Below are positions 1,198 through 19,940 of a stretch of DNA of 64,000 nucleotides, one piece after another. The position numbers and the translations under genes are program-made. Under the pieces are notes generated by a model. It searched no databases. It was not told the origin of the DNA and saw nothing but the letters and a program-made list of their open reading frames with translations. How positions within the stretch are numbered: position 1 is the stretch's first letter; each line of letters starts with the position of its first letter. Where the stretch lies: positions 1-64,000 of the IMG/VR virus record IMGVR_UViG_3300007516_000014; one strand, written 5' to 3'. Source of the stretch: a virus.

Positions 1198-2433
1198 TTG
1201 TCCATTTTGAATACGCCTATCGCGACGGCCAAATACGTGGCCGCCGTTCCGCAGATGTCGGAGCTGCTCCTCAAGCAATGGCCGGGATTGCCCGACGTGT
1301 CAGCCGAGCTGTTCGAAGATCACGGTGCACTGGAAACCAGTCTGATCCAGTACGTCACTGCCCAGCTTGCGGAGTACACGCCCGCGCATCAGGTCGAGAC
1401 CGTGCTTCGTCACAAAGGCCACAAGTGGCGGGCGATGTCTGCGCTTCAGAAGGCGATCCGCCGTAGCGACACGCTTCTCGCGTACAAGGCCGGACGCGCC
1501 ATGCTGTTCGGCGGTGTGTCGTCTGACTTGTGGCGGCGACTGGCCGTCATCTCGCTGGAGGACATCGGTCTGGCCGACCCGTACCAGTCGGCGTTCGCCA
1601 GCCTGTTCGCCGGCAACAAGGCTCTGCGTCTCAAGCTAGGCGAAGAGAAGCTAATGTTCTGGCTGTTGGACAAGATGTGCGGAGCAGCCAAGTCCCGCGA
1701 CTTGTGCGATCTGATCTTCTCAGCCTGGTGCGATCCTCCGTGCAAGGCCGTCGAGCCTGGTGTTCGCGCGCTTTCAACTGCCGAGGTGCTAGAGGTCGCG
1801 TGCGATGACGGGGCTCCGCTGATGGAACGGCTCTGGGCGTACCGCCACATGTGGGATCGCTGGAAGGACAAGAAGGAGGAGGCGCATCCAGCAGGCCTCA
1901 AGAAGGAGTTCTACGACAGGATCAAGCTGCCGTCGCTTTTCCAGTACATAGCAATGCAGAACATCAGGGCCACAAACGAGTCCTTGGCGATCTGCATCCC
2001 GGTGACCTGGCAGCTCATGCTTTCAAGCGAGTGGGCAGAAGCAGGACCCGATCCATTCGAGGGCTACGAGGGTGCGCTGGACAAGATCGGTGCCGTCTAC
2101 GCAGCGACGTATGACAAGCACACACAGGAAGGCAAGGCAGCGGCGAAGACCTTCCTGAACAGTTCTCCCGAGCTGATCCAGGCGGCCAATGACTTGTGCC
2201 TCGGCCAGGGCCTGGCTTCTGTGGAGCGGGCGATCTTCTATGTCGAGGGAGCCCTGTTGCTGCCCAGGTTCGGCTTCGCGGGCGCAAAGACGATCTTCGA
2301 CGACGTCCTGGACTCCAAGTTCAAAACGACCGGCTTCAAGACCTTCGAGGACGGTATGGAGTTCTTCCACATGGTAGGGCATCGCCTGCCGCATCTGAAC
2401 CAAATCCGCAAGAACATCGTGGGCGGGCCATGA
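1198..2433 (+). CDS. RarA/MgsA C-terminal-like protein
   Basis: A 411-residue protein whose centre (roughly residues 65-130) resembles the C-terminal tetramerisation region of the RarA/MgsA/WRNIP1 AAA+ family, with AMSALQKAIRRSD, a conserved Leu-Trp-Arg-Arg-Leu stretch and the signature SLEDIGLADP. The AAA+ ATPase part, including Walker A, is absent. RarA proteins act at stalled replication forks with SSB, so interference with or mimicry of fork processing is conceivable. The start is TTG 1198, 7 nt after AGGGAGGG. The stop overlaps the WbqC-like gene (ATGA). Confidence 0.5.
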   Translation: MSILNTPIATAKYVAAVPQMSELLLKQWPGLPDVSAELFEDHGALETSLIQYVTAQLAEYTPAHQVETVLRHKGHKWRAMSALQKAIRRSDTLLAYKAGRAMLFGGVSSDLWRRLAVISLEDIGLADPYQSAFASLFAGNKALRLKLGEEKLMFWLLDKMCGAAKSRDLCDLIFSAWCDPPCKAVEPGVRALSTAEVLEVACDDGAPLMERLWAYRHMWDRWKDKKEEAHPAGLKKEFYDRIKLPSLFQYIAMQNIRATNESLAICIPVTWQLMLSSEWAEAGPDPFEGYEGALDKIGAVYAATYDKHTQEGKAAAKTFLNSSPELIQAANDLCLGQGLASVERAIFYVEGALLLPRFGFAGAKTIFDDVLDSKFKTTGFKTFEDGMEFFHMVGHRLPHLNQIRKNIVGGP

Positions 2434-3146
2434 TCACACGGGTCAGCAGTCACCAGCCCTCTTTTTTTCCGTGGGCCGGCTACTGGAACAAGTTCGCCCA
2501 GTCCGACGTCCACGTCATGTCCTGCGGCGTCCAGTTCGATGCTCACGGTTGGCAGAACCGAGTGAAGGTCACGGACTTCATGGCCGTGCTTCCGGTGGAA
2601 GGTGGTTCCACGCACAAGCTCCTGAAGCACGTGTGCTACAAGGCTGAGGCATTGCCCAAGGTCTTAGCGTCGATACGTCAGGCGTTGACCGGTAAGAAAT
2701 GGCCCGGTCGCTGGGCCGTCGAACAAGCCCTCTACGAAACCGAGCACGAGACGGCGAAGAACCGTAATCACTGTTTGATGGACCTGAACATCGACAGCAT
2801 GCTGGCCACAGCCGGCGCGCTGAAACTGCTCGGCAAGACTCAGTACGTGATCGACACCGAGGAGTCTCTGCCCGAGCTGTCGAAGACCCAGCGCCTCGTC
2901 GCGCGTGTTCGACGTCATGTGCCCGAAGGTCGGATACACTATCTTGCCGGTTCCGGTGCTCTGGGCTATATAGATAGTAGTCAGGTACCGGCAGATTTTG
3001 AGCTGTATGTTCAGAAGCCCAAGGATGGGGCTCCGCCGCACTCGATATTGCAATCAATTGCACAGGGGGATGTGGCCGAGGCCATGTCTGAGCGGTGGTT
3101 CGAATGGACGAAAATCAGCCCAAGGAGGGGCGCAAGCGAGTCCTAG
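2430..3146 (+). CDS. WbqC-like family protein
   Basis: A 238-residue protein opening with SSHQPSFFPWAGYWNKF followed by QFDAHGWQNRVKV, the N-terminal hallmark of the WbqC family (usual pattern HQPnYlPWlGyf...vqf....W.nRn). These proteins accompany sugar-nucleotide and O-antigen genes; their exact chemistry is poorly defined. The start overlaps the upstream stop. A copy of the dispersed palindrome near the 3' end encodes LQSIAQ. It is the first member of an overlapping cassette with a deacetylase and two glycosyltransferases, which implies a shared sugar-modification role. Confidence 0.75.
   Translation: MITRVSSHQPSFFPWAGYWNKFAQSDVHVMSCGVQFDAHGWQNRVKVTDFMAVLPVEGGSTHKLLKHVCYKAEALPKVLASIRQALTGKKWPGRWAVEQALYETEHETAKNRNHCLMDLNIDSMLATAGALKLLGKTQYVIDTEESLPELSKTQRLVARVRRHVPEGRIHYLAGSGALGYIDSSQVPADFELYVQKPKDGAPPHSILQSIAQGDVAEAMSERWFEWTKISPRRGASES
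3048..3063 (+). repeat. dispersed palindrome, copy 2
   Basis: TTGCAATCAATTGCAC inside the WbqC-like gene, read as LQSIAQ. Confidence 0.8.
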
Positions 3147-3772
3147 TTGTTGCTCCGCACGCGGATGACGCTGAGCTGGGTCTCGGCGGATACCTGCATC
3201 GAGAAATCTCCGGTGGCCGAACGACTGCCAGAATAGTCGTCGTGGCCGAGACAGGGCCGTCTCGGAAGACCGAGCAGTTCGCAGCGGCGAAGTACCTCGA
3301 CATCGAGAACGTGCATTTCCTGGCAGAGGCCAAAGACAGCGAGTTCAACCTCGCCCCCATGGGTCGGCTTGTGAAGCGCCTCGAAGATGTAATCTTCAAC
3401 CACGGGCACTATGACGAGCTATTCGTTCCGCTGCCGTCGTTCCATGAAGACCATGACGTCACGCATCGAGCCTGCGTAGCGGCGCTTCGCCCGCATAAAG
3501 GCCGCCAGTTCCCATCCAGCATATTCTGTTACGAGTACCCCGCCCAGAGTTGGGGTCCGCAGGTTCCGGCCTGGGGCCGGGTCTACGCACCGCTGTCCCG
3601 AGAGTCGGTAGACGCCAAGCTCGCTGCACTCAAGCTCCATGGCTCCCAGTGGGTGTCTGACGACCAGTCCCTGTTCGGCCGGAAGGGTGTTCTGTCGCTC
3701 GCCAACATGCGCGGCGCTGAATGCCTGACCGACTTTGCCGAGCTTTTCTATGTGCTGCGAGGCGTGAAATGA
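3104..3772 (+). CDS. PIG-L/LmbE-type N-acetyl-sugar deacetylase
   Basis: A protein of about 222 residues with the PIG-L zinc motif PHADDAELGLGG (residues 18-29; family pattern hPDDe) and a downstream SFHEDHDVTH segment that supplies the third metal ligand. Such enzymes remove N-acetyl groups from GlcNAc-containing substrates or conjugates. The start is uncertain: ATG 3104 or GTG 3095, both overlapping the WbqC-like gene. A perfect AAGGAGGG at 3122-3129 lies inside the frame with no start codon at useful distance behind it. The stop overlaps the next gene (ATGA). Confidence 0.85.
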   Translation: MDENQPKEGRKRVLVVAPHADDAELGLGGYLHREISGGRTTARIVVVAETGPSRKTEQFAAAKYLDIENVHFLAEAKDSEFNLAPMGRLVKRLEDVIFNHGHYDELFVPLPSFHEDHDVTHRACVAALRPHKGRQFPSSIFCYEYPAQSWGPQVPAWGRVYAPLSRESVDAKLAALKLHGSQWVSDDQSLFGRKGVLSLANMRGAECLTDFAELFYVLRGVK

Positions 3773-5277: not shown

Positions 5278-6299
5278 CCCGTCTCACGATAATCACCGAC
5301 AAGATGGAAGGCATGTCCATCGACCACATAGCCAATGCGCTGGCCGCAGCGGCGATGGAGCTAGGCGCGGACGTGAAGATCGTTCGGGCCGGCAAAGTCC
5401 ACGGGGAGGAGGTCGCCGGCGCGCATGTCATCAGCCTGCTGCCGACCGAACTGTTTCGTTACGTCGCGGGGTTCCGGTTCGCCAGGCCCGCGACGTTCAC
5501 GACTGTCATCGCCTCGAACTGGGAGGAGCGGGAGCTACCGGACCAGCTCAAGTTGCTGGCGTATCACATGGCTCCGACCTGGAGCGGCGTCCCAGTGCAA
5601 TTGGTTGCACACTCGAAGCACACGACGGACCTGGTTCAGAAGCTCCTCCGCTCGATGATGTCACCGTCCTTCGCACGCGCGGTGTCTGCCCAGCTTGAGA
5701 CGGTCATGTACGGCATCGAGTCGGGCTTCGAACCGGGCACGAACGATCCCGATAGCCTGGTGGTGCCGTACAACCGCATCAACCAGACGCAGAAGCGGTG
5801 TGGCCTACAGGCTACAATCACGCACGAGTACAATCTGATGTCGCTGTCGCGCGGCCGTAATGTGACGAGCACGTTCTACCGAGGGGCCGCTGACTACGCG
5901 ATGTCCGACGTACCGGCCGAGATGGTCGGCGTGCATGAGTTCCAGCAGGAGCCGGCCAGCCGCGAAGTCTTCAAGGTGAATGCCCGCACGCACGGTATGT
6001 TCGTGTGCACGTCGCTGTTCGAGAGCTTCGGAATTTACTATCTGGAGCTGCTGGCCAGCGGCGTCGTGGGTGTCTTCGCGGACGCCCCGTGGCACAAGTC
6101 GCTGCTTCCTGGCTATCGCTACACGGCAAAGTCGCAGCATCTGTCAGCCATGATGATGCACGTCCGGGAAAACTACGACGAGGCACGGCGATATTTGCTC
6201 GACGAGGTCCGTCCGGCTATCATCGAGAAGTATTCGATCAGCCGGTTCAACGCCGAGCTGCTTGCTCACGCCCAAGGAGGGGTATCATGGGTAGCCTAG
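5274..6299 (+). CDS. glycosyltransferase, GT4-like
   Basis: A 341-residue protein. The N-terminal segment MTRLTIITDKMEGMSIDHIA matches the acceptor-domain start of GT-B enzymes. Near residue 250, SLFESFGIYYLELLASG is the classic GT4 E-F-G-x5-E donor-site motif, followed by a switch to a C-terminal helix. The substrate is unknown. A palindrome copy encodes VQLVAH near residue 108. The 3' end overlaps the ParB-like gene, whose ribosome-binding site lies within this frame. Confidence 0.75.
   Translation: MTRLTIITDKMEGMSIDHIANALAAAAMELGADVKIVRAGKVHGEEVAGAHVISLLPTELFRYVAGFRFARPATFTTVIASNWEERELPDQLKLLAYHMAPTWSGVPVQLVAHSKHTTDLVQKLLRSMMSPSFARAVSAQLETVMYGIESGFEPGTNDPDSLVVPYNRINQTQKRCGLQATITHEYNLMSLSRGRNVTSTFYRGAADYAMSDVPAEMVGVHEFQQEPASREVFKVNARTHGMFVCTSLFESFGIYYLELLASGVVGVFADAPWHKSLLPGYRYTAKSQHLSAMMMHVRENYDEARRYLLDEVRPAIIEKYSISRFNAELLAHAQGGVSWVA
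5595..5610 (-). repeat. dispersed palindrome, copy 3
   Basis: GTGCAATTGGTTGCAC, reverse orientation with a CCAA centre, in the GT4-like gene; read as VQLVAH. Confidence 0.75.
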
Positions 6300-7132
6300 A
6301 CAAGACTGAGAGCATTCGGCGCGAGAACGTGTCCATCGACCTGCTCGTCGTCAATTCGATGAACCCGAACAAGATGAAGGCGCGCGAGTTCGATCTGCTC
6401 GTCGACAATATCCAGCGCACCGGGTTGACCGACCCGATCCTTGTCCGCCCCATCGAAGACGGCAAGTATCGCATCGTTGGAGGCCATCATCGGTTCGATG
6501 CCGCGAAGTATCTTGACTTCAAGGAGGTGCCTTGCACGATCATCACGGATGTTGAGTTCGACGACGACGCGGAGAAGTTCCAGCTCGTTCGTATGAACGC
6601 CATCCACGGCAAGCTCGACCCGGAAGCGTTCTTCAAGCTCTACAACTCGATGGCCGGCAAGTACCAGGACGACGTCTTGCAGGAGAGCTTCGGCTTCGCG
6701 GACGACAAGGAGTTCCAACGCCTGATCGCCCAGATGTCCAAGGACATGCCGGACGACATGAAGAAGAAGTTCAAGGCAGCGGCGAAGGAAGTGAAGACCA
6801 TCGACGGCCTCGCCAAGCTGATGAACGAGCTGTACACGAAGTACGGCGATACACTCCCGTATGGCTTCATGGTCATCGATTTTGGCGGCAAGGAGTCGAT
6901 CTGGCTCCAGGTGACCAAGCCGACCATGAAGGCCGCCCACGCTTTCGGCGAGGTCTGCCGGGCCAACAAGCGCAGCATGGACGACATGATGGGCGCGCTT
7001 ATGCAATCAATTGCACTGCCGGAAGCGGCGGAGTTGCTGGCCTCGCTGCTCGCCATGACCCCGGAGATGGTAATTCCGGATAACGTGGGTGACCCGACCA
7101 AGAACAACATTCACGAAGCCAACCAGTTCTAG
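6287..7132 (+). CDS. ParB/Srx-fold protein
   Basis: A 281-residue protein starting at ATG 6287 behind AAGGAGGGG. Residues 16-85 form a ParB N-terminal-type domain: VNSMNPNKM, LVDNIQRTGLTDPILVRP, then YRIVGGHHRFDAAKYL, where GGHHR stands in place of the canonical GERR CTP/nuclease motif, and the VPCTIITD strand. No clear ParB helix-turn-helix was found; the rest is helical. Such phage proteins can be nucleases, CTP-dependent clamps or accessory factors in DNA modification. It lies just upstream of the terminase genes and carries a palindrome copy (MQSIAL). Confidence 0.7.
   Translation: MGSLDKTESIRRENVSIDLLVVNSMNPNKMKAREFDLLVDNIQRTGLTDPILVRPIEDGKYRIVGGHHRFDAAKYLDFKEVPCTIITDVEFDDDAEKFQLVRMNAIHGKLDPEAFFKLYNSMAGKYQDDVLQESFGFADDKEFQRLIAQMSKDMPDDMKKKFKAAAKEVKTIDGLAKLMNELYTKYGDTLPYGFMVIDFGGKESIWLQVTKPTMKAAHAFGEVCRANKRSMDDMMGALMQSIALPEAAELLASLLAMTPEMVIPDNVGDPTKNNIHEANQF
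7001..7016 (+). repeat. dispersed palindrome, copy 4
   Basis: ATGCAATCAATTGCAC in the ParB-like gene; read as MQSIAL. Confidence 0.8.
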
Positions 7133-10677: not shown

Positions 10678-10693
10678 ACCAAGGAGGGTCGCA

Positions 10694-12766
10694 GTGAGCA
10701 AATTTCATTCTTTCGGACCGTTCATCCAGCCAGGCAATCTGGCGGTGGATGACAAGATGCACCTCGGTGGCAAGGGTGCTGGTCTGGTCCGCATGTCGTC
10801 CATGGGCATCCCGGTGCCTCCCGGCTTCACGATCCCCACTCCGTTCTGTGCGGCCTTCGAGAAGGCGGCGCTCGATAAGGGCGGCTTCATCGACAGCCTG
10901 ATGAAGGATGTCCACGAGCACATGCAGGAAGTAGAGGCCGCGCTGGGCTATGCCCCGCTCGTCTCGGTCCGCTCGGGCGCACCGGTCTCGATGCCGGGCA
11001 TGATGGACACGATCCTCAACGTCGGCCTGACGAACGCCACCATGGACGCCTGGAAGGCACGGATTGGCGAGCGAGCGGCGCTCGACAGCTACCGCCGACT
11101 GATCCAGATGCTGGGCTGCACAGCCTACGGCGTCGACCACTCGCTGTTCGAAGCGGAGCTGGTTGCTGCTCGGACTGCCGCGAAAGTGGCCGCCGACAAT
11201 CAGCTGAACCCCGTGCAACTGGTTGCACTGATCGCCAAGTACCTCACCATCTTCCACAAGCAGACCGGTTCGACGTTCCCCGACACTGTCGAGGCGCAGC
11301 TTCACGCGTCCATCGGAGCGGTGTTCGCTTCGTGGCACAACGAGCGGGCCGTGATCTATCGCAAGATGAACGGGATCGATGCCTCGATGGGCACTGCGGT
11401 GACCGTCCAGGCAATGGTGTTCGGCAACATGAATGACAACAGCGGGTCGGGCGTCCTGTTCTCCCGGAACCCGTCGACCGGCGTCAACGAGCTGTACGGT
11501 GAGTTCCTGCCGAATGCTCAGGGCGAGGACGTGGTAGCCGGCATCCGGACGCCCCTCCAGCTGATCGACATGCAGCCGCTGTGGCCGGAAGTTCTCGACC
11601 AGCTGAACGATATCGCCTGCAAGCTCGAAGGCGAGTATGCGGATATGGTCGATCTGGAGTTCACGGTGCAGGACAAGGTTCTGTATCTGCTCCAGTGCCG
11701 GCCCGGTAAGCGCGGTGCCATGGCCGCCTTCCGGATTGCGCGTGATCTGGAGCACGAGACGGTGATCGACAAGAAGACGGCGATCAGCCGCCTGTCCTCC
11801 AGGGAGTACAAACTGACCCGCCAGCCGGTGGTCGATCCCAAGTTCAAGGTTGCTCCCGTGGCGACCGGGCTGTTCGGTTCGACGGGTGTAGCGGTGGGCA
11901 AGCCGGTCTACACGGCAGCTGCTGCAATTGATTGCAAAGAACCCTGCATCCTGGTCACTCACGAGACCGACCCGGATGATGTCGGCGGAATGTACGCCGC
12001 CAAGGGTGTTCTGACCGCCACCGGTGGCCAGACCTCCCACGCTGCGGTGGTAGCGCGCGGAATGAACAAGCCCTGCGTGGTCGGCTGCATCGGGATCGTC
12101 GAGCTGATCAAGAAGTCTCAGGCGAAGATGGTGACCATCGACGGCGCGACGGGCCAGGTATGGCTCGACGTGGTTGTACCGGTTGTGGATAATTCGGCGG
12201 ATGAAGCGGTGGCTGAAATCGTCAGCTGGATCGTCAAGTCCGACGTTAGCCCGGTCTGCAAAATACCTTCGAGCGGTCCGGCCATTGTGCAGGTCGCTGA
12301 CTGGAAGATGGAGCAGCTCAACATAATGGCCCTTATGTCGCACCCGGACCCTTCGCAGCTCACCTTGGATTTCAGGGCGGCGACACAAATCAGTTGCGAG
12401 GAAGACGAACCTCTGGCAAGCCTCTACGGAGACGTTGCGCCAATCGGTACACCTGATTTAAGGTGGCTGCTAAAGGCTATTGAGGGCCTGGGAAGTGCAA
12501 TGTCTGGTCTCACCGTTATTGGCGCTCCGAGTTCCGAGAAGATGAAAAAGGCTGGCGTGATATTCCTGGCTCGTCCGGTATCGACTCTGGTCGATATGCT
12601 GGACGGGGGTGACATGGCTGTCAGCCCTGCCTTCTCGGCGGTGCTGGAGATGGCCGTGTATGACAAGATCGCTGGCCTGCTCAAGGACGCGGGCAAGGAG
12701 ATCAAAGCGACGGTGCCCGTCTATGGGTTGCCCGCTGAGTATCAGGTTTTCAAGGCATTGAGTTAG
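10694..12766 (+). CDS. pyruvate phosphate dikinase-like phosphotransferase without PEP barrel
   Basis: A 690-residue protein starting at GTG 10694 behind AAGGAGGG. Residues 1-350 match the PPDK ATP-grasp domain: GGKGAGLVRMSSMGIPVPPGF, SVRSGAPVSMPGMMDT, VFGNMNDNSGSGVLFSRNPSTG and AQGEDVVAGIRTP. The swivelling phosphohistidine domain has TGGQTSHAAVVARGMNKPC with catalytic His449. The usual C-terminal PEP/pyruvate TIM barrel of about 350 residues is missing. In its place are about 190 residues unlike that barrel (from DNSADEAVAEIV to VYGLPAEYQVFKALS). ATP-dependent His phosphorylation should be possible, but the acceptor is unknown, as in rifampicin phosphotransferases that share the first two domains. 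It is followed after 9 nt by a CsrA-like gene. Confidence 0.85.
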   Translation: MSKFHSFGPFIQPGNLAVDDKMHLGGKGAGLVRMSSMGIPVPPGFTIPTPFCAAFEKAALDKGGFIDSLMKDVHEHMQEVEAALGYAPLVSVRSGAPVSMPGMMDTILNVGLTNATMDAWKARIGERAALDSYRRLIQMLGCTAYGVDHSLFEAELVAARTAAKVAADNQLNPVQLVALIAKYLTIFHKQTGSTFPDTVEAQLHASIGAVFASWHNERAVIYRKMNGIDASMGTAVTVQAMVFGNMNDNSGSGVLFSRNPSTGVNELYGEFLPNAQGEDVVAGIRTPLQLIDMQPLWPEVLDQLNDIACKLEGEYADMVDLEFTVQDKVLYLLQCRPGKRGAMAAFRIARDLEHETVIDKKTAISRLSSREYKLTRQPVVDPKFKVAPVATGLFGSTGVAVGKPVYTAAAAIDCKEPCILVTHETDPDDVGGMYAAKGVLTATGGQTSHAAVVARGMNKPCVVGCIGIVELIKKSQAKMVTIDGATGQVWLDVVVPVVDNSADEAVAEIVSWIVKSDVSPVCKIPSSGPAIVQVADWKMEQLNIMALMSHPDPSQLTLDFRAATQISCEEDEPLASLYGDVAPIGTPDLRWLLKAIEGLGSAMSGLTVIGAPSSEKMKKAGVIFLARPVSTLVDMLDGGDMAVSPAFSAVLEMAVYDKIAGLLKDAGKEIKATVPVYGLPAEYQVFKALS
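11213..11228 (-). repeat. dispersed palindrome, copy 5
   Basis: GTGCAACTGGTTGCAC, the most diverged centre (CCAG on the reverse strand), in the dikinase gene; read as VQLVAL. Confidence 0.65.
11922..11937 (-). repeat. dispersed palindrome, copy 6
   Basis: CTGCAATTGATTGCAA in the dikinase gene; read as AAIDCK, a different frame from the VQ-type copies. Confidence 0.65.
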
Positions 12767-12775
12767 GAGCTTCAG

Positions 12776-13054
12776 ATGGGTTTGGTTCTCACCATTCGAC
12801 AGGGCGAAGACTTCTTCGTCGACAACGATCAGTTCTTTTTGGAGAAGATCATATCGGAAGACGAAGTCCGCATCTTCCGCCCCAAGGATGGGAAGAAGAT
12901 CACGGCGTCGACCAAAGACATGACCGATATTCAAGACGACGTGAGCGTCCAAGTCGCGGATCGCATCACGAGCAAGGCAGCCCGTCTGGTTATCGAGGCA
13001 CCACGGACGAAGCTGATACTGACTGGTGTTAAATTTCGTACACCGCGAACATAG
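12776..13054 (+). CDS. CsrA-like small protein
   Basis: A 92-residue protein starting 10 nt after the dikinase stop. MGLVLTIRQGEDFFVDND followed by VRI resembles the CsrA start (M-L-x-L-T-R-k-x-G-E-s-i-x-I-g-d), and ARLVIEAPR resembles the CsrA strand VRLGIdAP. The His-Arg pair of the CsrA RNA-binding face was not found, and the protein is longer than usual CsrA (about 60 residues). It could be a diverged RNA-binding regulator of phage or host carbon metabolism. The match is by eye and needs a profile search. Confidence 0.4.
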   Translation: MGLVLTIRQGEDFFVDNDQFFLEKIISEDEVRIFRPKDGKKITASTKDMTDIQDDVSVQVADRITSKAARLVIEAPRTKLILTGVKFRTPRT

Positions 13055-13451: not shown

Positions 13452-13961
13452 GTGAACAAACACTATGTACCATCGCGTCCCCAGCCTGTCGGCTTCATGC
13501 CGATCCCGGTCGGCCATGGGCGAATGTTCGCCATCGAAGGTGGACCGTTCATCGCGTTCGACCGCAACACGGCGAAGGACGCGTTCGCCTTGTGCCTCGA
13601 AGCCCGGTCAGGAAACGTGGCGACGGCCAGCGTGGCGCTCGATGTGCCGGACTTCAGCACGCCCGATCCCAAGGGCCTCGACAGCGCGCTCTCCAAGATG
13701 GTCGACGCGCTCTACAAGGGCCGCCCGGCGTACATCGGCTGCATGGCAGGGCAGGGCCGAACAGGCCTTGCGATGGCCTGCCTCGCCCGCGAGTTCGGCG
13801 TCATCGAGCCGATCAAGCACGTCCGCCGTTACTACACGTCCCATGCGGTGGAGACGTCCAATCAGGCAGCCTTCGTCAAGGACACCCCGCTGCCCAAGAC
13901 CAGGTGGCGCATCCGGATCAACCGTCTCCGCGCTTCTTTGCCCTGGCTCTGGATTTCTTAA
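13452..13961 (+). CDS. protein tyrosine/dual-specificity phosphatase-like protein
   Basis: A 169-residue protein with GTG start 4-5 nt after AAGGAGGG. The PTP loop CMAGQGRT (Cys97, CX5R) is preceded by the strand PAYIG and followed by GLAMACLAREFGV, the normal PTP helix. An upstream acidic loop (DVPDFSTPDP) could supply the general acid. The enzyme would dephosphorylate proteins, nucleotides or sugars by a cysteinyl-phosphate route. The C-terminus is basic and hydrophobic (RINRLRASLPWLWIS). A second, different phosphatase lies 1.1 kb downstream. Confidence 0.8.
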   Translation: MNKHYVPSRPQPVGFMPIPVGHGRMFAIEGGPFIAFDRNTAKDAFALCLEARSGNVATASVALDVPDFSTPDPKGLDSALSKMVDALYKGRPAYIGCMAGQGRTGLAMACLAREFGVIEPIKHVRRYYTSHAVETSNQAAFVKDTPLPKTRWRIRINRLRASLPWLWIS

Positions 13962-14020: not shown

Positions 14021-15088
14021 ATGCAACTCGCCCCGACCGACACGCTGGCCTATTTCAAAACGAGAGCGCTGACGGCAGCGCGCTCGATGACCGGCGTGCC
14101 GTGTGCCACCGTAGCCCAGAAGATTAAATGGGCGACGGACAGTATGGGAGGAGTCCATCCCGAGACCGAGGCGCTGTGGTTCTACATGATGAACCACGGC
14201 ATGTCGGAGATTAGCAAGAATTACGCTGATCTGGAGCCGCTGCCCGACGACGTGCTCAAGTTCGTCAAACACTACTATGACGAGGGGGCGAAGAAGGCCC
14301 TGCGAGCGATGTCGTACCTGATGCTGATCTGCGTGCGCGAGGCTCGCCATCTGAAGAACAAGACGGAGATGAAGTCCGCCATCGTGGCGTCATCGTCCTT
14401 GGAGATGTGGCAGTATTTGGGCCTCGTCCCGGACGACGCCATGATGGCCCAGGAGATGTTCGCCAGCAGCCCTCCCAAGTGCGATGTGGCGACCTTCTGC
14501 AAGGGGCTGGCCTTCCAGTTCTACAACGGTTCGTATAGCAACAGCTACGGCGGCGCGAAGTGGGGTGTAGTCGCAGACTGCCTCAAGAAGTTCGTGACCG
14601 GCGAGGTGACTGCCGAGATTATGCTCGATACGATCTGGACTCTATGCCATAACGGAGGCCCTATATTCAACAAGGGCGTTTTGTATCAGCACCACGATAA
14701 GGCTGCCCTGACGCGCATTCTCGACGTCCAGCGCGGTGGTCAGATACCGCAGATGATCGCCACGTACGACAAGGTCGAGCATTACCTGTTGCCCGACATG
14801 ATCGTACGGAACAACTGGCTGCGGTCGAGGTTCCCGGCGACGACAACGGGTGATCTCGATTGGGAAATCATTCAGAAACTCGGCGCGGTCGGCGATTATA
14901 AGGCCGAGATCCATAACGCCAAGATGATGACGCCTGAGTACAAGGCGCAGCTGGCTGCGGAGAAGGTTGCTGCTCAGGCCGCTGCGATCAAGCATGCGGC
15001 GGACCAGGCGAAGAAATTCGCCAACATGTATCAAGTCACCACGGACGTATGGGTGGACAAGTTCCAGCCAGAGCGGGAGGCAGTGTGA
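14021..15088 (+). CDS. hypothetical protein between two phosphatases
   Basis: A 355-residue, mainly helical protein starting at ATG 14021 behind AAGGAGGG. A central segment, FYNGSYSNSYGGAKWG, then CLKKF and TLCHNGGPIFNKGVLY, looks like conserved core, and residues 305-340 are an Ala/Lys-rich coiled coil. No family was recognised. Its stop overlaps the second phosphatase start (GTGA), which suggests that the two products are made together, perhaps as substrate or partner. Confidence 0.65.
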   Translation: MQLAPTDTLAYFKTRALTAARSMTGVPCATVAQKIKWATDSMGGVHPETEALWFYMMNHGMSEISKNYADLEPLPDDVLKFVKHYYDEGAKKALRAMSYLMLICVREARHLKNKTEMKSAIVASSSLEMWQYLGLVPDDAMMAQEMFASSPPKCDVATFCKGLAFQFYNGSYSNSYGGAKWGVVADCLKKFVTGEVTAEIMLDTIWTLCHNGGPIFNKGVLYQHHDKAALTRILDVQRGGQIPQMIATYDKVEHYLLPDMIVRNNWLRSRFPATTTGDLDWEIIQKLGAVGDYKAEIHNAKMMTPEYKAQLAAEKVAAQAAAIKHAADQAKKFANMYQVTTDVWVDKFQPEREAV

Positions 15089-16026
15089 GCAAGTTTGAAA
15101 TTCGGTACATGAACATGGCCGGGAAGGACTGGAGTCACTCGATGGTCAACGACAACAAGAAGGAGGCCAGTCCGCTTACCGCTGAGGAGTACGACGCGCT
15201 CAAGTCGAACGTGTCGGCCCGTCGTGATCGCTCATATACCCAGCCGAACCTCCCCGCTATCACCAGCTCGCACAAAGATGACGGCATAGGCCAGTATGAG
15301 CCCTGGGACGATGATTTGATCGACACGGCCACTACCCCCCACGCAGGGGAGCCAAAGGCCAAGACCGAGGGAATTTCAGCCCCTTACGTCCGTTGTTACG
15401 AAAGCCACACACCACTTCAACTCGGTGACGGTATGGTGGTGTACGGCGGCTCCTGCCACAGCCCGGTCGTCACGGATGCCAACATTTACGTGGCGCTCGA
15501 CGGTGGCTTCAAGAATACGACCCGCCACTGGCCGTGGACGGAGTCTCCCGCCCTGGAGATCAGGTTCCCGATTGACGACATGCAGATACCGAAGTCGAAG
15601 AAGGACTTCGTGCAATTGATTGCATGGCTGGCCGAGGGGATTAAGGCCGGGAAGAAAGTCCATGTCGGCTGCATCGGAGGCCATGGCCGGACCGGTATGG
15701 TCCTCACAGCCCTGCTAGCGGCGTTCAATCCGGAAATGAAGGATGTGATCCAGCAAGCTCGGGCTGGCTACTGCACCAAGATCGTCGAGTCTGACAAGCA
15801 GGTGAAGTTCCTGATGGAAGTCACCGGCTGTGATACGGCAGCCGCCGCCAAGTCATCGGACTCGACGTACGCAAGCTGGAGCAAATCCGGCGCGGGCAAG
15901 CAAGGTTCGCTGTGGAGTGCCGGTGGTAAGTATCAGGGTGGCAGCACGAGCATAGGCTCGAAGGTTGCCTTCGCGGTGAACAGCGACACCTGCGTGTGGG
16001 GAAATAACGCAATAAGCAAGAAATAA
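15085..16026 (+). CDS. second CX5R phosphatase-like protein
   Basis: A 313-residue protein from GTG 15085. The catalytic loop CIGGHGRTG (Cys196) follows KVHVG and precedes MVLTALLAAF, the PTP signature. Upstream, MQIPKSKKDFVQLIAWLAEGI matches the helix before the P-loop in dual-specificity phosphatases. The N-terminal 100 residues are low-complexity, and the C-terminal 70 residues are Ser/Gly/Lys-rich, possibly disordered. A palindrome copy encodes VQLIAW within the helix before the loop. Confidence 0.8.
   Translation: MSKFEIRYMNMAGKDWSHSMVNDNKKEASPLTAEEYDALKSNVSARRDRSYTQPNLPAITSSHKDDGIGQYEPWDDDLIDTATTPHAGEPKAKTEGISAPYVRCYESHTPLQLGDGMVVYGGSCHSPVVTDANIYVALDGGFKNTTRHWPWTESPALEIRFPIDDMQIPKSKKDFVQLIAWLAEGIKAGKKVHVGCIGGHGRTGMVLTALLAAFNPEMKDVIQQARAGYCTKIVESDKQVKFLMEVTGCDTAAAAKSSDSTYASWSKSGAGKQGSLWSAGGKYQGGSTSIGSKVAFAVNSDTCVWGNNAISKK
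15610..15625 (-). repeat. dispersed palindrome, copy 7
   Basis: GTGCAATTGATTGCAT in the second phosphatase gene; read as VQLIAW. Confidence 0.75.
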
Positions 16027-16082: not shown

Positions 16083-16925
16083 ATGGCAATCATCATAAAT
16101 TCAATCAACGGTTACGCGCTACTTGAGAAAGCGGTGGCCGGACTCTCTACGAGTTCGTGCGTCGCAGACCTGAAGGCCGCGTCGGTGTCGATCCATATTA
16201 CGCCGACGAAGGTCGTGTTCAGGCAGGGGCCGGAGACCTTGTCGGCCTTCATGTGCAAGTCGAGCGATCTTGAAAAGATCAGCAAGGGCGGCCCGATGTC
16301 ACCCGGAGTGGCCGCTTCGTTCAAGAACGCTCTGAACCATGCCTGGAGCGCCTTGCAACACGAAAATAGCGGCGCTGAACCGCTCACGCCGACCGGCACT
16401 GTGCAGGCCGGTCCGGCGCACAGTGTGAAGTCTCACGAGATTAAGACCGTGATCGACATGCTGCTCCAAAGTTCCCCGAAGAATACGGCGTCGACCGACA
16501 CTGTGCAGGTCGGTCCGGGACATACAGCTCCGCTGTCGGTTGGACTGTTCCCGGTCGCTCAGATGCAGACGGCTCCGCTGGTTCCCCTGGAGACTGCCGA
16601 CAGGCTGTATCAGCCGGTCAATGGCAGCAGCGGTGGCAGCCGCTATTTCGTGGTCGCCCTGCGTAGCGATCTGAAGGTCGCTGCCCGCTATCGTGGCGAC
16701 AAGCTGTCCATCCGGGTCGAGGGCAAAGCGCTCAAGGTGTTCTCCAAGGCTCTGGATGTCGCGGGCTTTGCCAGCAGCAACGGACCGTATCGGTCGCTCC
16801 ATCTTGGGCCGCTCGGCGGACCGGTGATGGCAGGGCGCACTCTAGGCTCCGTCCTCTGCGGGATGAATATCGACTTCGTGTCGACTACTCCGCAGATCGG
16901 GGTGATCGCCAACAAGGGTAACTGA
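16083..16925 (+). CDS. hypothetical protein
   Basis: A 280-residue protein. Two similar segments, TGTVQAGPAHS and TDTVQVGPGHT (about residues 105-145), form an internal repeat encoded by similar DNA (actgtgcaggycggtcc). The C-terminal 90 residues are beta-rich (SRYFVVALR, KLSIRVEGKALKVF). No family was recognised. It starts a unit leading to the DNA polymerase. Confidence 0.6.
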   Translation: MAIIINSINGYALLEKAVAGLSTSSCVADLKAASVSIHITPTKVVFRQGPETLSAFMCKSSDLEKISKGGPMSPGVAASFKNALNHAWSALQHENSGAEPLTPTGTVQAGPAHSVKSHEIKTVIDMLLQSSPKNTASTDTVQVGPGHTAPLSVGLFPVAQMQTAPLVPLETADRLYQPVNGSSGGSRYFVVALRSDLKVAARYRGDKLSIRVEGKALKVFSKALDVAGFASSNGPYRSLHLGPLGGPVMAGRTLGSVLCGMNIDFVSTTPQIGVIANKGN

Positions 16926-17164: not shown

Positions 17165-17625
17165 GCCATACATCTGAGTTCTACCCGTTGGCCGACGCGC
17201 TAGCGATGCGGTTCAAGGTTGACCTGGAGGTCTTCCAGCTCGAAGGATCAGGCGATGTCACTGTCGACATCGGCCAGTTCAGCATCAAGCTGTCCCTCAC
17301 CACGATCAGCTCAGTCATCGACAATGATGGTTCTGTCGCCATGCTGATCGAAACAAAATCTGGCAACCTTGGGTTGTTCGTGGTATATCGACCGTCCACC
17401 AAGAGGATCGAAGTGTCGCCCGTCGACCTTTCGATCTTGCCCAAGGAGGGGCAGGTCTTCTTCGAAGATTTAACCGTCATCTCGGTGGCTGTCGCCCGCG
17501 AACTGTCTCTGTCCATGATGCGAGCCTATCGGACGTTCGTCATGGACTACAAACAAGGATGGTCTGAAGTATGTCACGAACACTCGTCTTCTGGTACGCC
17601 CAGCACGGAACCGCCCACGCCCTGA
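17161..17625 (+). CDS. hypothetical protein overlapping the polymerase start
   Basis: A 154-residue beta-rich protein from ATG 17161. No recognised family. Its last 55 nt overlap the DNA polymerase gene in another frame, an unusually long overlap for this genome, so the two are probably translationally coupled. Confidence 0.55.
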   Translation: MSHTSEFYPLADALAMRFKVDLEVFQLEGSGDVTVDIGQFSIKLSLTTISSVIDNDGSVAMLIETKSGNLGLFVVYRPSTKRIEVSPVDLSILPKEGQVFFEDLTVISVAVARELSLSMMRAYRTFVMDYKQGWSEVCHEHSSSGTPSTEPPTP

Positions 17626-19940
17626 TCACGAAGGCGCTACAGGCGTACGAGACCAAGCCCGCGTACCGCTTGCACACATATAGCGGTGCCTTGTACGTCC
17701 CGGCCCCTGACGAAGTCGTCCTGGCCATGGGCAAAGACCTGCTCGACACGCTGGCCGCCGCCGGCATCACGCCAAAGAAGCGCACCGTAGACAGCGTGCG
17801 CGGCAAGGCGTTCAAGGCCTCCAGCGGCGGCGAGTATCTGGTGACGTACAGCCCCGCGATGACGGCCATCGACTCCGCCAAGACGGATGAGATTGCCTGG
17901 GACATTCGCCTCGCGGAGCGGTTGGTTCGCACCGGGCAACTCAAGCCTGAGACAGGCACGTATCGCTGGGTGCAAGACTTCAGCGAGCTGGTCAGTGCAA
18001 TTGAATGCACGTACGCGAAGACCGGCAAGCCCGTCACGGTGGGTGGTGACACGGAGACGCTCGGGCTTCAACCGTATGATGGAGCGCCGCTGGTAGCGGT
18101 GGGCTTCACGGATCGAGCCAGGTTCGCGGACTGCCTGCACCTGCACGACATCCAGACCGAGGCGCAGGCGATCAAGGTGATCGAGACCTTGCAGTTCCTG
18201 CTGACGTCCCCGAAGGTCAAGATGGTCGGGGCCAACTTCAAGTTCGACATGATGTGGTTCGGTGTGCGGCTCCAGGTCGAATGCACGAACTTCGCCTTCG
18301 ACACCCTGTTGGCCGGCAGCCTGCTGGACGAGAACCGCAGCAACAGCCTGAACAACCACGCCAAGATTTACACGACCATGGGCGGATACGACGACGCCTT
18401 CAATGACAAGTACGACAAGTCGCGGATGGACCTGGTGCCAAAGGCGGACATGCTCGAATATCTGGGCGGTGACGTAGACGCAGTCTTCCGGTCCGCAACC
18501 AAGATCAGGGAGGAACTGCTTGCCGTACCGGCGCTCGCCAATTTCTACATCAACCTGCTGCATCCAGCGGCGCTCACCTTCGGCCGCATGGAGCGGCGCG
18601 GCATCCTCGGGAGCCCGGAACGGTTCGAGGCGTTGCGCGTAGAGTTGGAAGGGCAGGACGGCAAGGGCGGCGCTCTCGGGGCGCTGGACGAGAAGGCCAT
18701 CAGCCTGCTGCCTGCTCGTATCCGGATGAAGTATGCCGACGATCTGTCGATGAACCGGGGAGCCTTGTTGAAGGATTACTTCTTCAGCCCTCTAGGGCTC
18801 AATCTAAAGCCCCTGGTGGTGACACCAAAGACTGGTGAACCCTCGACATCAAAGACTCATCTTTCCATGTTCTACGACCGTCCCGAGGCCAAAATGATGG
18901 TCGAGACCATGGCGGCTCGCGGCAGCGCGTCGAAGGTGCTCACGACGTACGTCAAGGGCTTCCTGAAGCACCTGCGGTCCGATGGATATTTCCATCCGTC
19001 GTACATGCTGTTCGCCGGCAAACTGTTCGACAACGACAACGACGATAGCGGCACGAACACCGGTCGGACGTCGGCCAAAGACCCGGCGATCCAGACCGTG
19101 CCCAAGCGGGGAGAGTGGGCCAAGAAGTTGCGGCAATGCTTCCCGGCCCCTCCCGGCATGGCCTACTGGTCAACAGACTGCATGCAGGGTGAATTGAAAA
19201 TTGCAGCCTGTCTGTCGAACGAAGAGAACATGCTAGCGGCGTATCTCGCCGGTCTCGATCTCCACGCTGTCACCGGCGCATCGATGATGGACATGGAGTA
19301 CGAGGAGTTCATGCTTCTGTCGGATGACGTGAACAACAAGGAGCAGATGGGCATCTTCGAACTGGGTCGGTACAGGGCCAAGGCCGCCAACTTCGGTCTG
19401 CTGTACGAGATGCAAGCGGCGGGCTTTGTCCGGTACGCGTGGGCGACGTTCAAGATGATCCTGACCCTCGACCAGGCCCAGGACATCATCGACAAGTTCT
19501 TCACCAAGTATCCTGGATTGCTCGACTGGCATGCGGCGTACAAGAGCATGGCCAAGCGGGACGGTTACATCTGCAATCCGTTTGGCCGGGTCCGTCATCT
19601 GCCGCTGATCCATAGCTCGGAGTGGCACGTCGCCGGCAAGGCCCAGCGTCAGGCGATCAACGCCCCGGTGCAGTCGTCCCTGTCCGAGATCACTTGCTGG
19701 GCGCTGACCAATATCGACAAGTACGTCGGACAGGCCCAGGCGGTAGCTATGATCCATGACGCCGGACTGGGCTACGCCCCGGAAGATCAGATCGAGGAAG
19801 TCGGCCGGAGGATCGTCGAGGTCGCCAGCACCCTGCCGATCAAGGAGACGTTCGGCTGGGACCATCAACTCCAGTTCACGTTCGATCTGGAGATCGGCCC
19901 GGACATGGGCAGCATGACGAAGGTCAAGATCGCCGCCTGA
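17571..19940 (+). CDS. family A DNA polymerase with 3'-5' exonuclease
   Basis: A 789-residue replicative polymerase. The exonuclease residues are DTE (160-162), NFKFD (Asp226) and GGDVDAVFR (Asp301/303). Polymerase motif A is STDCMQGELKIA (Asp536). Motif B is RYRAKAANFGLLYE (Lys604, Phe608, Tyr612), where Tyr is followed by Glu rather than the usual Gly. Motif C is MIHDAG (His729, Asp730) with Ala731 replacing the widely conserved Glu of HDE. The exonuclease is intact, so proofreading is expected. The first 150 residues are a phage-specific extension; there is no 5'-nuclease domain. Confidence 0.92.
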   Translation: MSRTLVFWYAQHGTAHALITKALQAYETKPAYRLHTYSGALYVPAPDEVVLAMGKDLLDTLAAAGITPKKRTVDSVRGKAFKASSGGEYLVTYSPAMTAIDSAKTDEIAWDIRLAERLVRTGQLKPETGTYRWVQDFSELVSAIECTYAKTGKPVTVGGDTETLGLQPYDGAPLVAVGFTDRARFADCLHLHDIQTEAQAIKVIETLQFLLTSPKVKMVGANFKFDMMWFGVRLQVECTNFAFDTLLAGSLLDENRSNSLNNHAKIYTTMGGYDDAFNDKYDKSRMDLVPKADMLEYLGGDVDAVFRSATKIREELLAVPALANFYINLLHPAALTFGRMERRGILGSPERFEALRVELEGQDGKGGALGALDEKAISLLPARIRMKYADDLSMNRGALLKDYFFSPLGLNLKPLVVTPKTGEPSTSKTHLSMFYDRPEAKMMVETMAARGSASKVLTTYVKGFLKHLRSDGYFHPSYMLFAGKLFDNDNDDSGTNTGRTSAKDPAIQTVPKRGEWAKKLRQCFPAPPGMAYWSTDCMQGELKIAACLSNEENMLAAYLAGLDLHAVTGASMMDMEYEEFMLLSDDVNNKEQMGIFELGRYRAKAANFGLLYEMQAAGFVRYAWATFKMILTLDQAQDIIDKFFTKYPGLLDWHAAYKSMAKRDGYICNPFGRVRHLPLIHSSEWHVAGKAQRQAINAPVQSSLSEITCWALTNIDKYVGQAQAVAMIHDAGLGYAPEDQIEEVGRRIVEVASTLPIKETFGWDHQLQFTFDLEIGPDMGSMTKVKIAA
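17995..18010 (-). repeat. dispersed palindrome, copy 8
   Basis: GTGCAATTGAATGCAC in the polymerase gene; read as SAIECT. One arm base differs from the consensus. Confidence 0.6.

What the first reader, a model, noticed from the sequence alone, without database searches (positions are those of the whole stretch)
10694..12766. Phage pyruvate-phosphate-dikinase relative lacking the PEP/pyruvate domain
ATP-grasp and phosphohistidine domains are intact (His449 in TGGQTSHAAVVARG), but the TIM barrel that defines PPDK is replaced by about 190 unrelated residues. The enzyme may move phosphate from ATP to a new acceptor, as rifampicin phosphotransferase does. A dikinase of this kind in a siphophage is unusual and could inactivate a host factor or alter energy metabolism.
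Basis: partly seen in the sequence, partly recalled or inferred. Interest (0 to 1): 0.78.

Follow-up and report, generated by a model that had tools for sequence, protein, structure and literature searches.

The report
Phage dikinase missing its pyruvate domain
A family of large tailed phages carries a working-looking copy of the ATP-to-histidine half of pyruvate phosphate dikinase without the half that binds pyruvate, always in one block with a CsrA-like protein, two phosphatases and two proteins of unknown function, so it is probably not the sugar-metabolism gene it has been published as.

Summary
The 690-aa protein (10694-12766, GTG start behind AAGGAGG) matches pyruvate phosphate dikinase (PPDK) over residues ~18-516 and then stops matching. 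Pfam finds the ATP-grasp and phosphohistidine domains in all 68 phage relatives scanned and the PEP/pyruvate barrel in none. Host PPDKs put through the same tests keep the barrel. His449 and the ATP-grasp residues are essentially invariant in intact copies, so the gene is not decaying.

It is not rare. At least 39 sequenced phage genomes and over 80 distinct viral contigs carry it, published as a 'PPDK' metabolic gene. One paper (PMC12038007) claims a TIM barrel in 168 residues.

New here: the gene belongs to a fixed block, PPDK-like / CsrA-like / DSP phosphatase / phrog_20946 / DSP phosphatase / ~280-aa protein / DNA polymerase, in 78 of 86 distinct loci. The phrog_20946 protein has a confidently predicted all-helical fold with no PDB match.

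Best reading: a self-phosphorylating phosphohistidine kinase, as VadK (Rv1127c) was shown to be in 2026 (PMC13400623). It probably passes phosphate to an acceptor belonging to the block, and the phosphatases oppose or follow it. The acceptor is unknown. A DNA-modification role is possible but weakened by EcoRI/XbaI-ended clones from one carrier phage.

The parts
10681..10688 (+). Shine-Dalgarno sequence AAGGAGGG before GTG start
   Evidence: read directly
10694..12766 (+). barrel-less PPDK-like dikinase, 690 aa (phrog_18609)
10694..11728 (+). ATP-grasp (PPDK_N) region, residues 1-345; K27 R93 D320 E322 Q334 R336 conserved
11867..12163 (+). swivelling phosphohistidine domain (PEP-utilizers), residues ~392-490
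12038..12040 (+). catalytic His449 codon (CAC)
   Evidence: H in 88 of 89, the exception being a frameshifted copy
12239..12763 (+). C-terminal domain, residues ~516-690, in place of the PEP/pyruvate barrel; fast-evolving
12776..13054 (+). CsrA-like small protein, 92 aa
   Evidence: PF02599 E 2e-4, below cut-off; relative L008 above cut-off; in 84 of 86 distinct loci
13452..13961 (+). DSP/PTP-type phosphatase 1 (PTP-SAK); Cys97 in GCMAGQGRTG, Asp67
14021..15088 (+). phrog_20946 protein, 355 aa, predicted all-helical fold with no PDB match; invariant RExR, GGxxW, HN, K, LDxQxxG
15049..16026 (+). DSP/PTP-type phosphatase 2; Cys208 in GCIGGHGRTG, Asp177 (true start may be 15109 or later)
16083..16925 (+). 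~280-aa protein of unknown function (phrog_25950-like); the family published as 'pyruvate decarboxylase' or 'transporter' in Vibrio phages
17571..19940 (+). family A DNA polymerase that closes the block

Best explanation
The protein is a barrel-less descendant of PPDK that still binds ATP and phosphorylates its own His449 on a swivelling domain, but cannot make PEP. It hands the phosphoryl group to a non-pyruvate acceptor that belongs to, or is bound by, the proteins encoded in the same block (most likely via the phrog_20946 enzyme), and the two DSP-type phosphatases remove or process that phosphate. Shown here: the architecture, conservation of catalytic residues, one common origin in the phages, and near-invariant linkage to the other genes. 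Inferred: autophosphorylation (shown experimentally only in VadK), transfer onward, and the acceptor's identity.
For: ATP-grasp residues and His conserved in all intact relatives, apart from one Asp-to-Glu in phage G; no barrel in 68 of 68, with positive controls. All phage-block copies form one clade apart from cellular PPDK (SH-aLRT 95), so this is an old inherited gene, not a recent capture. Block order identical in 130 of 139 loci and, counting each distinct phrog_20946 sequence once and adding the CsrA-like gene, 78 of 86, always on one strand. phrog_20946 lies in 40 phage records, whose 39 genomes all hold the PPDK-like gene (the fortieth is a VHS1 fragment); its relatives in bacterial contigs carry the block too. 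Phosphatases keep CX5R and a conserved Asp. Precedent: VadK, a PPDK relative lacking the pyruvate/PEP domain, autophosphorylates His422 with ATP and Mg and binds partner enzymes (PMC13400623).
Against: No biochemistry on any phage member. All carriers share polymerase, portal and mostly terminase genes, so some of the fixed gene order is shared descent and not by itself proof of joint function. The C-terminal domain varies strongly (mean column identity 19%), which is odd for an acceptor site. No tool links the phosphatases to the kinase's product.
Confidence: 0.6

Rival explanations
1. The block makes a modified nucleotide or modified DNA: the dikinase phosphorylates or pyrophosphorylates a nucleotide or base, the phosphatases trim phosphates, phrog_20946 does the chemistry, and the neighbouring DNA polymerase uses or tolerates the product.
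For: Block nearly always ends at the DNA polymerase gene. DLP3, a carrier, has DNA resistant to 15 restriction enzymes, nature of modification unknown (PMC7326821). Sugar and glycosyltransferase genes lie upstream in carriers.
Against: Two GenBank clones of carrier phage VHS1 end in EcoRI and XbaI sites (GAATTC...GAATTC; TCTAGA...GAATTC), which suggests that DNA is cut by enzymes that fail on DLP3. DLP3 resistance may come from its glycosyltransferase. No known base-modification family was recognised in the block.
Confidence: 0.2
2. VadK-like regulator: the phosphorylated protein works by binding and modulating a host or phage enzyme, with no onward transfer of phosphate; the phosphatases reset it or act separately.
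For: VadK precedent: its authors propose control of methylcitrate synthase by binding (PMC13400623). The variable C-terminal domain could be the binding part.
Against: Does not explain why phrog_20946 and two phosphatases travel with it. DSP phosphatases that remove phosphate from His are not a usual finding (general knowledge).
Confidence: 0.15
3. Published reading: an auxiliary metabolic gene that interconverts pyruvate and PEP to boost host glycolysis.
For: 43% identity to PPDK over the first ~500 residues; stated in PMC12038007 and PMC9229204.
Against: No barrel domain, none of its motifs (including the J26 protein itself). The neighbouring 'pyruvate decarboxylase' cited with it has no Pfam match and belongs to the ~280-aa family.
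Confidence: 0.03
4. Split enzyme with a host or phage protein supplying a PEP/pyruvate or other barrel in trans.
For: Bacterial genomes usually encode barrel-bearing PEP enzymes.
Against: No barrel protein recognised in the block; the C-terminal extension occupies the junction; the VadK authors reject the same idea for their protein.
Confidence: 0.02

Closest known systems
VadK (Rv1127c, Mycobacterium tuberculosis; PMC13400623)
   Same: PPDK-derived ATP-grasp plus phospho-His domain, no pyruvate/PEP domain, conserved catalytic His
   Different: VadK has no extra C-terminal domain like the ~175 residues here, is cellular, and acts on the methylcitrate cycle; no phosphatase or phrog_20946 partner is described. 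The paper does not mention phages
Pyruvate, phosphate dikinase (TIGR01828, EC 2.7.9.1)
   Same: 43% identity over residues ~18-516 with the ATP-grasp and His residues
   Different: PEP/pyruvate TIM barrel absent; 518 bits against an 843-bit family cut-off
phrog_18609 'kinase' / 'PPDK' of Vibrio phages SIO-2, VHS1, J26, Stenotrophomonas DLP3/DLP5, Rhizobium RHph_TM16, Rhodobacter RcZahn
   Same: same gene, same block, same gene order; RcZahn is homologous over the full length
   Different: in the records and papers seen it is named PPDK, PEP-utilizing enzyme or kinase; the missing barrel and the gene block are not noted in the papers read
Rifampicin phosphotransferase (NF041857)
   Same: ATP-grasp plus phospho-His engine serving a non-pyruvate acceptor
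   Different: different domain order; 65 bits against a 999-bit cut-off
Alpha-glucan water dikinase with DSP-type glucan phosphatases (general knowledge)
   Same: a barrel-less dikinase paired with DSP-type phosphatases on one substrate is a working analogy
   Different: only 7 of 68 members show a weak match to a GWD domain model (best E 0.0013); no glucan-binding domain found

Membership tests
Pyruvate, phosphate dikinase | ATP-grasp nucleotide domain with catalytic residues | tested here: met
   PF01326 E 7e-48; residues conserved
Pyruvate, phosphate dikinase | swivelling domain with catalytic His | tested here: met
   PF00391 E 4e-25; His449 invariant in intact copies
Pyruvate, phosphate dikinase | C-terminal PEP/pyruvate-binding TIM barrel | tested here: not met
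   PF02896 in 0 of 68; barrel motifs absent; profile comparison 2.6%; positive control
Pyruvate, phosphate dikinase | score above TIGR01828 cut-off | tested here: not met
   518 against 843 bits
VadK-type truncated PPDK | PPDK ATP-grasp and His domains, no barrel | tested here: met
VadK-type truncated PPDK | protein ends after the His domain | tested here: not met
   about 175 further residues here; VadK described as only the two domains (PMC13400623)
VadK-type truncated PPDK | ATP- and Mg-dependent autophosphorylation of the catalytic His | not testable with these tools
   needs purified protein
Rifampicin phosphotransferase | His domain at the C-terminal end after a substrate domain; family score | tested here: not met
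   His domain at residues 392-490 of 690; 65 against 999 bits
PEP synthase | family score with PEP barrel | tested here: not met
   TIGR01418 105 against 740 bits
DSP/PTP-type phosphatases (13452-13961, 15049-16026) | CX5R loop with conserved general-acid Asp | tested here: met
   PTP-SAK / Tc-R-P Pfam matches; C, R and an Asp conserved in nearly all of 81

The most novel reading that the evidence does not exclude
The six-gene block is an undescribed phage phosphotransfer system: ATP charges a PPDK-derived phosphohistidine carrier, an enzyme of a new fold (phrog_20946) moves the phosphate to a nucleic-acid, nucleotide or protein target at the replication stage, and two dedicated phosphatases edit or complete the product.
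Probability: 0.35. Interest if true: 0.82.

Novelty: new variant of a known kind. Interest (0 to 1): 0.6.

Why it matters
It corrects an auxiliary-metabolic-gene claim repeated in several phage papers. It gives phages a counterpart of the newly described VadK, suggesting that PPDK has been turned into a phosphohistidine kinase more than once. It also points to a conserved gene block with a predicted enzyme of unmatched fold, whose function can now be tested as a unit in cultured phages such as RcZahn.

Tried and rejected
Decayed gene: rejected, catalytic residues conserved; the one His exception (L044) is a frameshifted copy. Recent capture from a host: rejected by one phage clade (the deep placement of phage G and of the 1,430-aa cellular proteins is unreliable because of long branches). 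Chance gene order: 78 of 86 distinct loci, though shared phage descent contributes. Fold search for the C-terminal domain: no significant PDB match, weak TIM-barrel-like neighbours. Fold search for phrog_20946: no PDB match; in the viral library four strong matches, unnamed there and presumably phage relatives (not checked), plus one partial match, Q0WX59, not followed. Pfam scan of 66 phrog_20946 members: no recurring family. Sequence-profile search of PDB with either alignment: nothing convincing. Plasmids: none. Literature for a phage DNA-hypermodification link to a dikinase: none found. NF004531 (534-position short PPDK model): 416 bits against a 456-bit cut-off, but that model also accepts full-length PPDKs, so it does not diagnose VadK-type proteins. 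One malformed submission was returned and corrected.

Full report
WHAT IS THERE. The ORF at 10694-12766 is real: GTG start preceded by AAGGAGGG, 690 aa. It matches PPDK_N and the PEP-utilizers mobile domain and nothing else in Pfam. Its best PDB relatives are true PPDKs (397 bits), far above PEP synthase (81 bits) and the chains 5fbs, 5hv1 and 5hv2 deposited as PEP synthase (about 42 bits), which I take from memory to be rifampicin phosphotransferase structures. Against TIGR01828 it aligns to positions 14-523 of 865.

THE BARREL IS MISSING, NOT HIDDEN. Of 68 phage relatives, all have both N-terminal domains and none has PEP-utilizers_C. A cellular PPDK run the same way shows that domain at E 9e-79, and cellular PPDKs cover the whole TIGR01828 model, including those in four bacterial genomes whose assemblies also contain the short phage-type copy. 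Profile-profile alignment gives 43% identity over 510 columns and then ends. The C-terminal region does not align to the barrel (2.6% probability). Seven barrel motifs are present in 12 of 12 cellular proteins and absent from 83 phage C-termini but for one weak match. Distinct full-size phage ORFs are 616-809 aa stop to stop, against about 870-890 aa for cellular PPDK. The C-terminal domain alone models as a small alpha/beta domain (pLDDT 82.6). Its best Foldseek neighbours are mostly TIM barrels but none is significant (best E 0.14), so a rebuilt barrel remnant remains possible.

IT IS NOT DECAYING. R93, E322, Q334 and R336 are invariant, K27 is invariant wherever the sequence reaches it, and His449 is invariant in intact copies; D320 is E once (phage G). 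The only non-His sequence is a frameshifted ORF. The phage-block copies form a single group (SH-aLRT 95) separate from 27 cellular PPDKs.

IT BELONGS TO A BLOCK. In 139 loci with enough downstream sequence (some contigs counted twice), all have phrog_20946 and at least one DSP phosphatase, all on the same strand, and 130 have the exact order PPDK-like, phosphatase 1, phrog_20946, phosphatase 2, ~280-aa protein, DNA polymerase. Counting each distinct phrog_20946 sequence once and adding the CsrA-like gene, 78 of 86 share the full order and 84 have the CsrA-like gene. Genes that merely sit nearby, such as the 176-aa gene upstream, are found by BLAST in only 26 of 89 loci. Among annotated phages phrog_20946 is in 40 records (Vibrio, Stenotrophomonas, Rhizobium, Rhodobacter); the 39 genomes among them also hold the PPDK-like gene (compare), the fortieth being a VHS1 fragment. 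More distant phages with related portal or polymerase genes (for example RcDurkin, Agrobacterium JP1, Aeromonas HJ05, Rhizobium RHph_I4) appear in neither list, so the block seems absent as a unit there. Caution: carriers are one phage lineage, so shared descent contributes to the fixed order.

THE PARTNERS. Both phosphatases keep the CX5R loop and a conserved Asp. Some records call them thymidylate synthase, which Pfam does not support. The phrog_20946 protein has 18 invariant positions over 66 sequences, including R106, E107, R109, W181, D203, H210, N211, K218, D235 and Q237, and a very confident all-helical model (pLDDT 94) without any PDB match. It looks like an enzyme of unmatched fold (inference). 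The ~280-aa protein has no known domain and is the one published as 'pyruvate decarboxylase' in J26. The CsrA-like protein is near or above the Pfam cut-off depending on the member.

HOW IT MOST LIKELY WORKS. By analogy with PPDK and with VadK, where loss of the pyruvate/PEP domain leaves ATP- and Mg-dependent phosphorylation of the catalytic His (PMC13400623), the phage protein should phosphorylate His449 and then serve an acceptor other than pyruvate. The tight linkage suggests that the acceptor is reached through the block's own proteins. That step, and what the phosphatases act on, is inference.

DNA MODIFICATION? DLP3, a carrier, has DNA resistant to 15 restriction enzymes including EcoRI and XbaI (PMC7326821), and carriers have sugar-processing genes upstream. 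Against this, GenBank clones of carrier VHS1 begin and end with EcoRI or XbaI sites, which suggests that this phage DNA is cut by those enzymes. So the block does not by itself give that resistance, though a subtler modification is not excluded.

WHAT IS NEW. The gene is known and published as PPDK (PMC12038007, PMC9229204, PMC10671443, PMC10272388). PMC12038007 assigns a TIM barrel to residues 524-691 of J26 with only four strands; my Pfam run on that protein finds no barrel domain. Barrel loss in cellular PPDK relatives is known from VadK. The phage family as a VadK-like but separate architecture with a C-terminal extension, and the six-gene block, were not described in the papers I could read; subscription papers were not searched.

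Noticed in passing
12776-13054: Small CsrA-like protein directly after the dikinase in 84 of 86 distinct loci; most relatives keep the ILRG-type Arg near the C-terminus, the window copy has Thr there.
   Followed up: partly
2196-3143, 3095-3769, 6005-7129: Upstream genes: WbqC-like, PIG-L/LmbE deacetylase, ParB-like; related phages add dehydratase, aminotransferase and glycosyltransferase genes, suggesting sugar modification of DNA or surface.
   Followed up: partly
L244:1151-2005: 'Pyruvate decarboxylase' of Vibrio phage J26 is a member of the ~280-aa family with no Pfam domain; likely misannotation.
   Followed up: yes
L241:11593-12369 and phrog_17568: 'Thymidylate synthase' annotation on DSP/PTP-type phosphatases in Stenotrophomonas phages and in PHROGs looks wrong.
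   Followed up: partly
L093-L098: The whole block also lies in bacterial assemblies (for example Roseococcus pinisoli, 668-kb contig; Azospirillum sp. RU38E), probably prophages of the same lineage.
   Followed up: partly
L215, L216, L217: Cellular proteins of ~1,430 aa end in a barrel-less PPDK-like ATP-grasp plus His module after a long N-terminal region; L215 sits between two GAPDH-like genes. Common in Pseudomonadota genomes sampled.
   Followed up: partly
L214:6397-8265: A stand-alone barrel-less PPDK-like protein ending right after the His domain, next to a glutamine synthetase gene, in a bacterial genome; not linked to the phage block.
   Followed up: partly
L010:7965-9062: Bacillus phage G gp139 is a still shorter PPDK relative that lacks two internal stretches and ends after the His domain; no block partners nearby.
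   Followed up: partly
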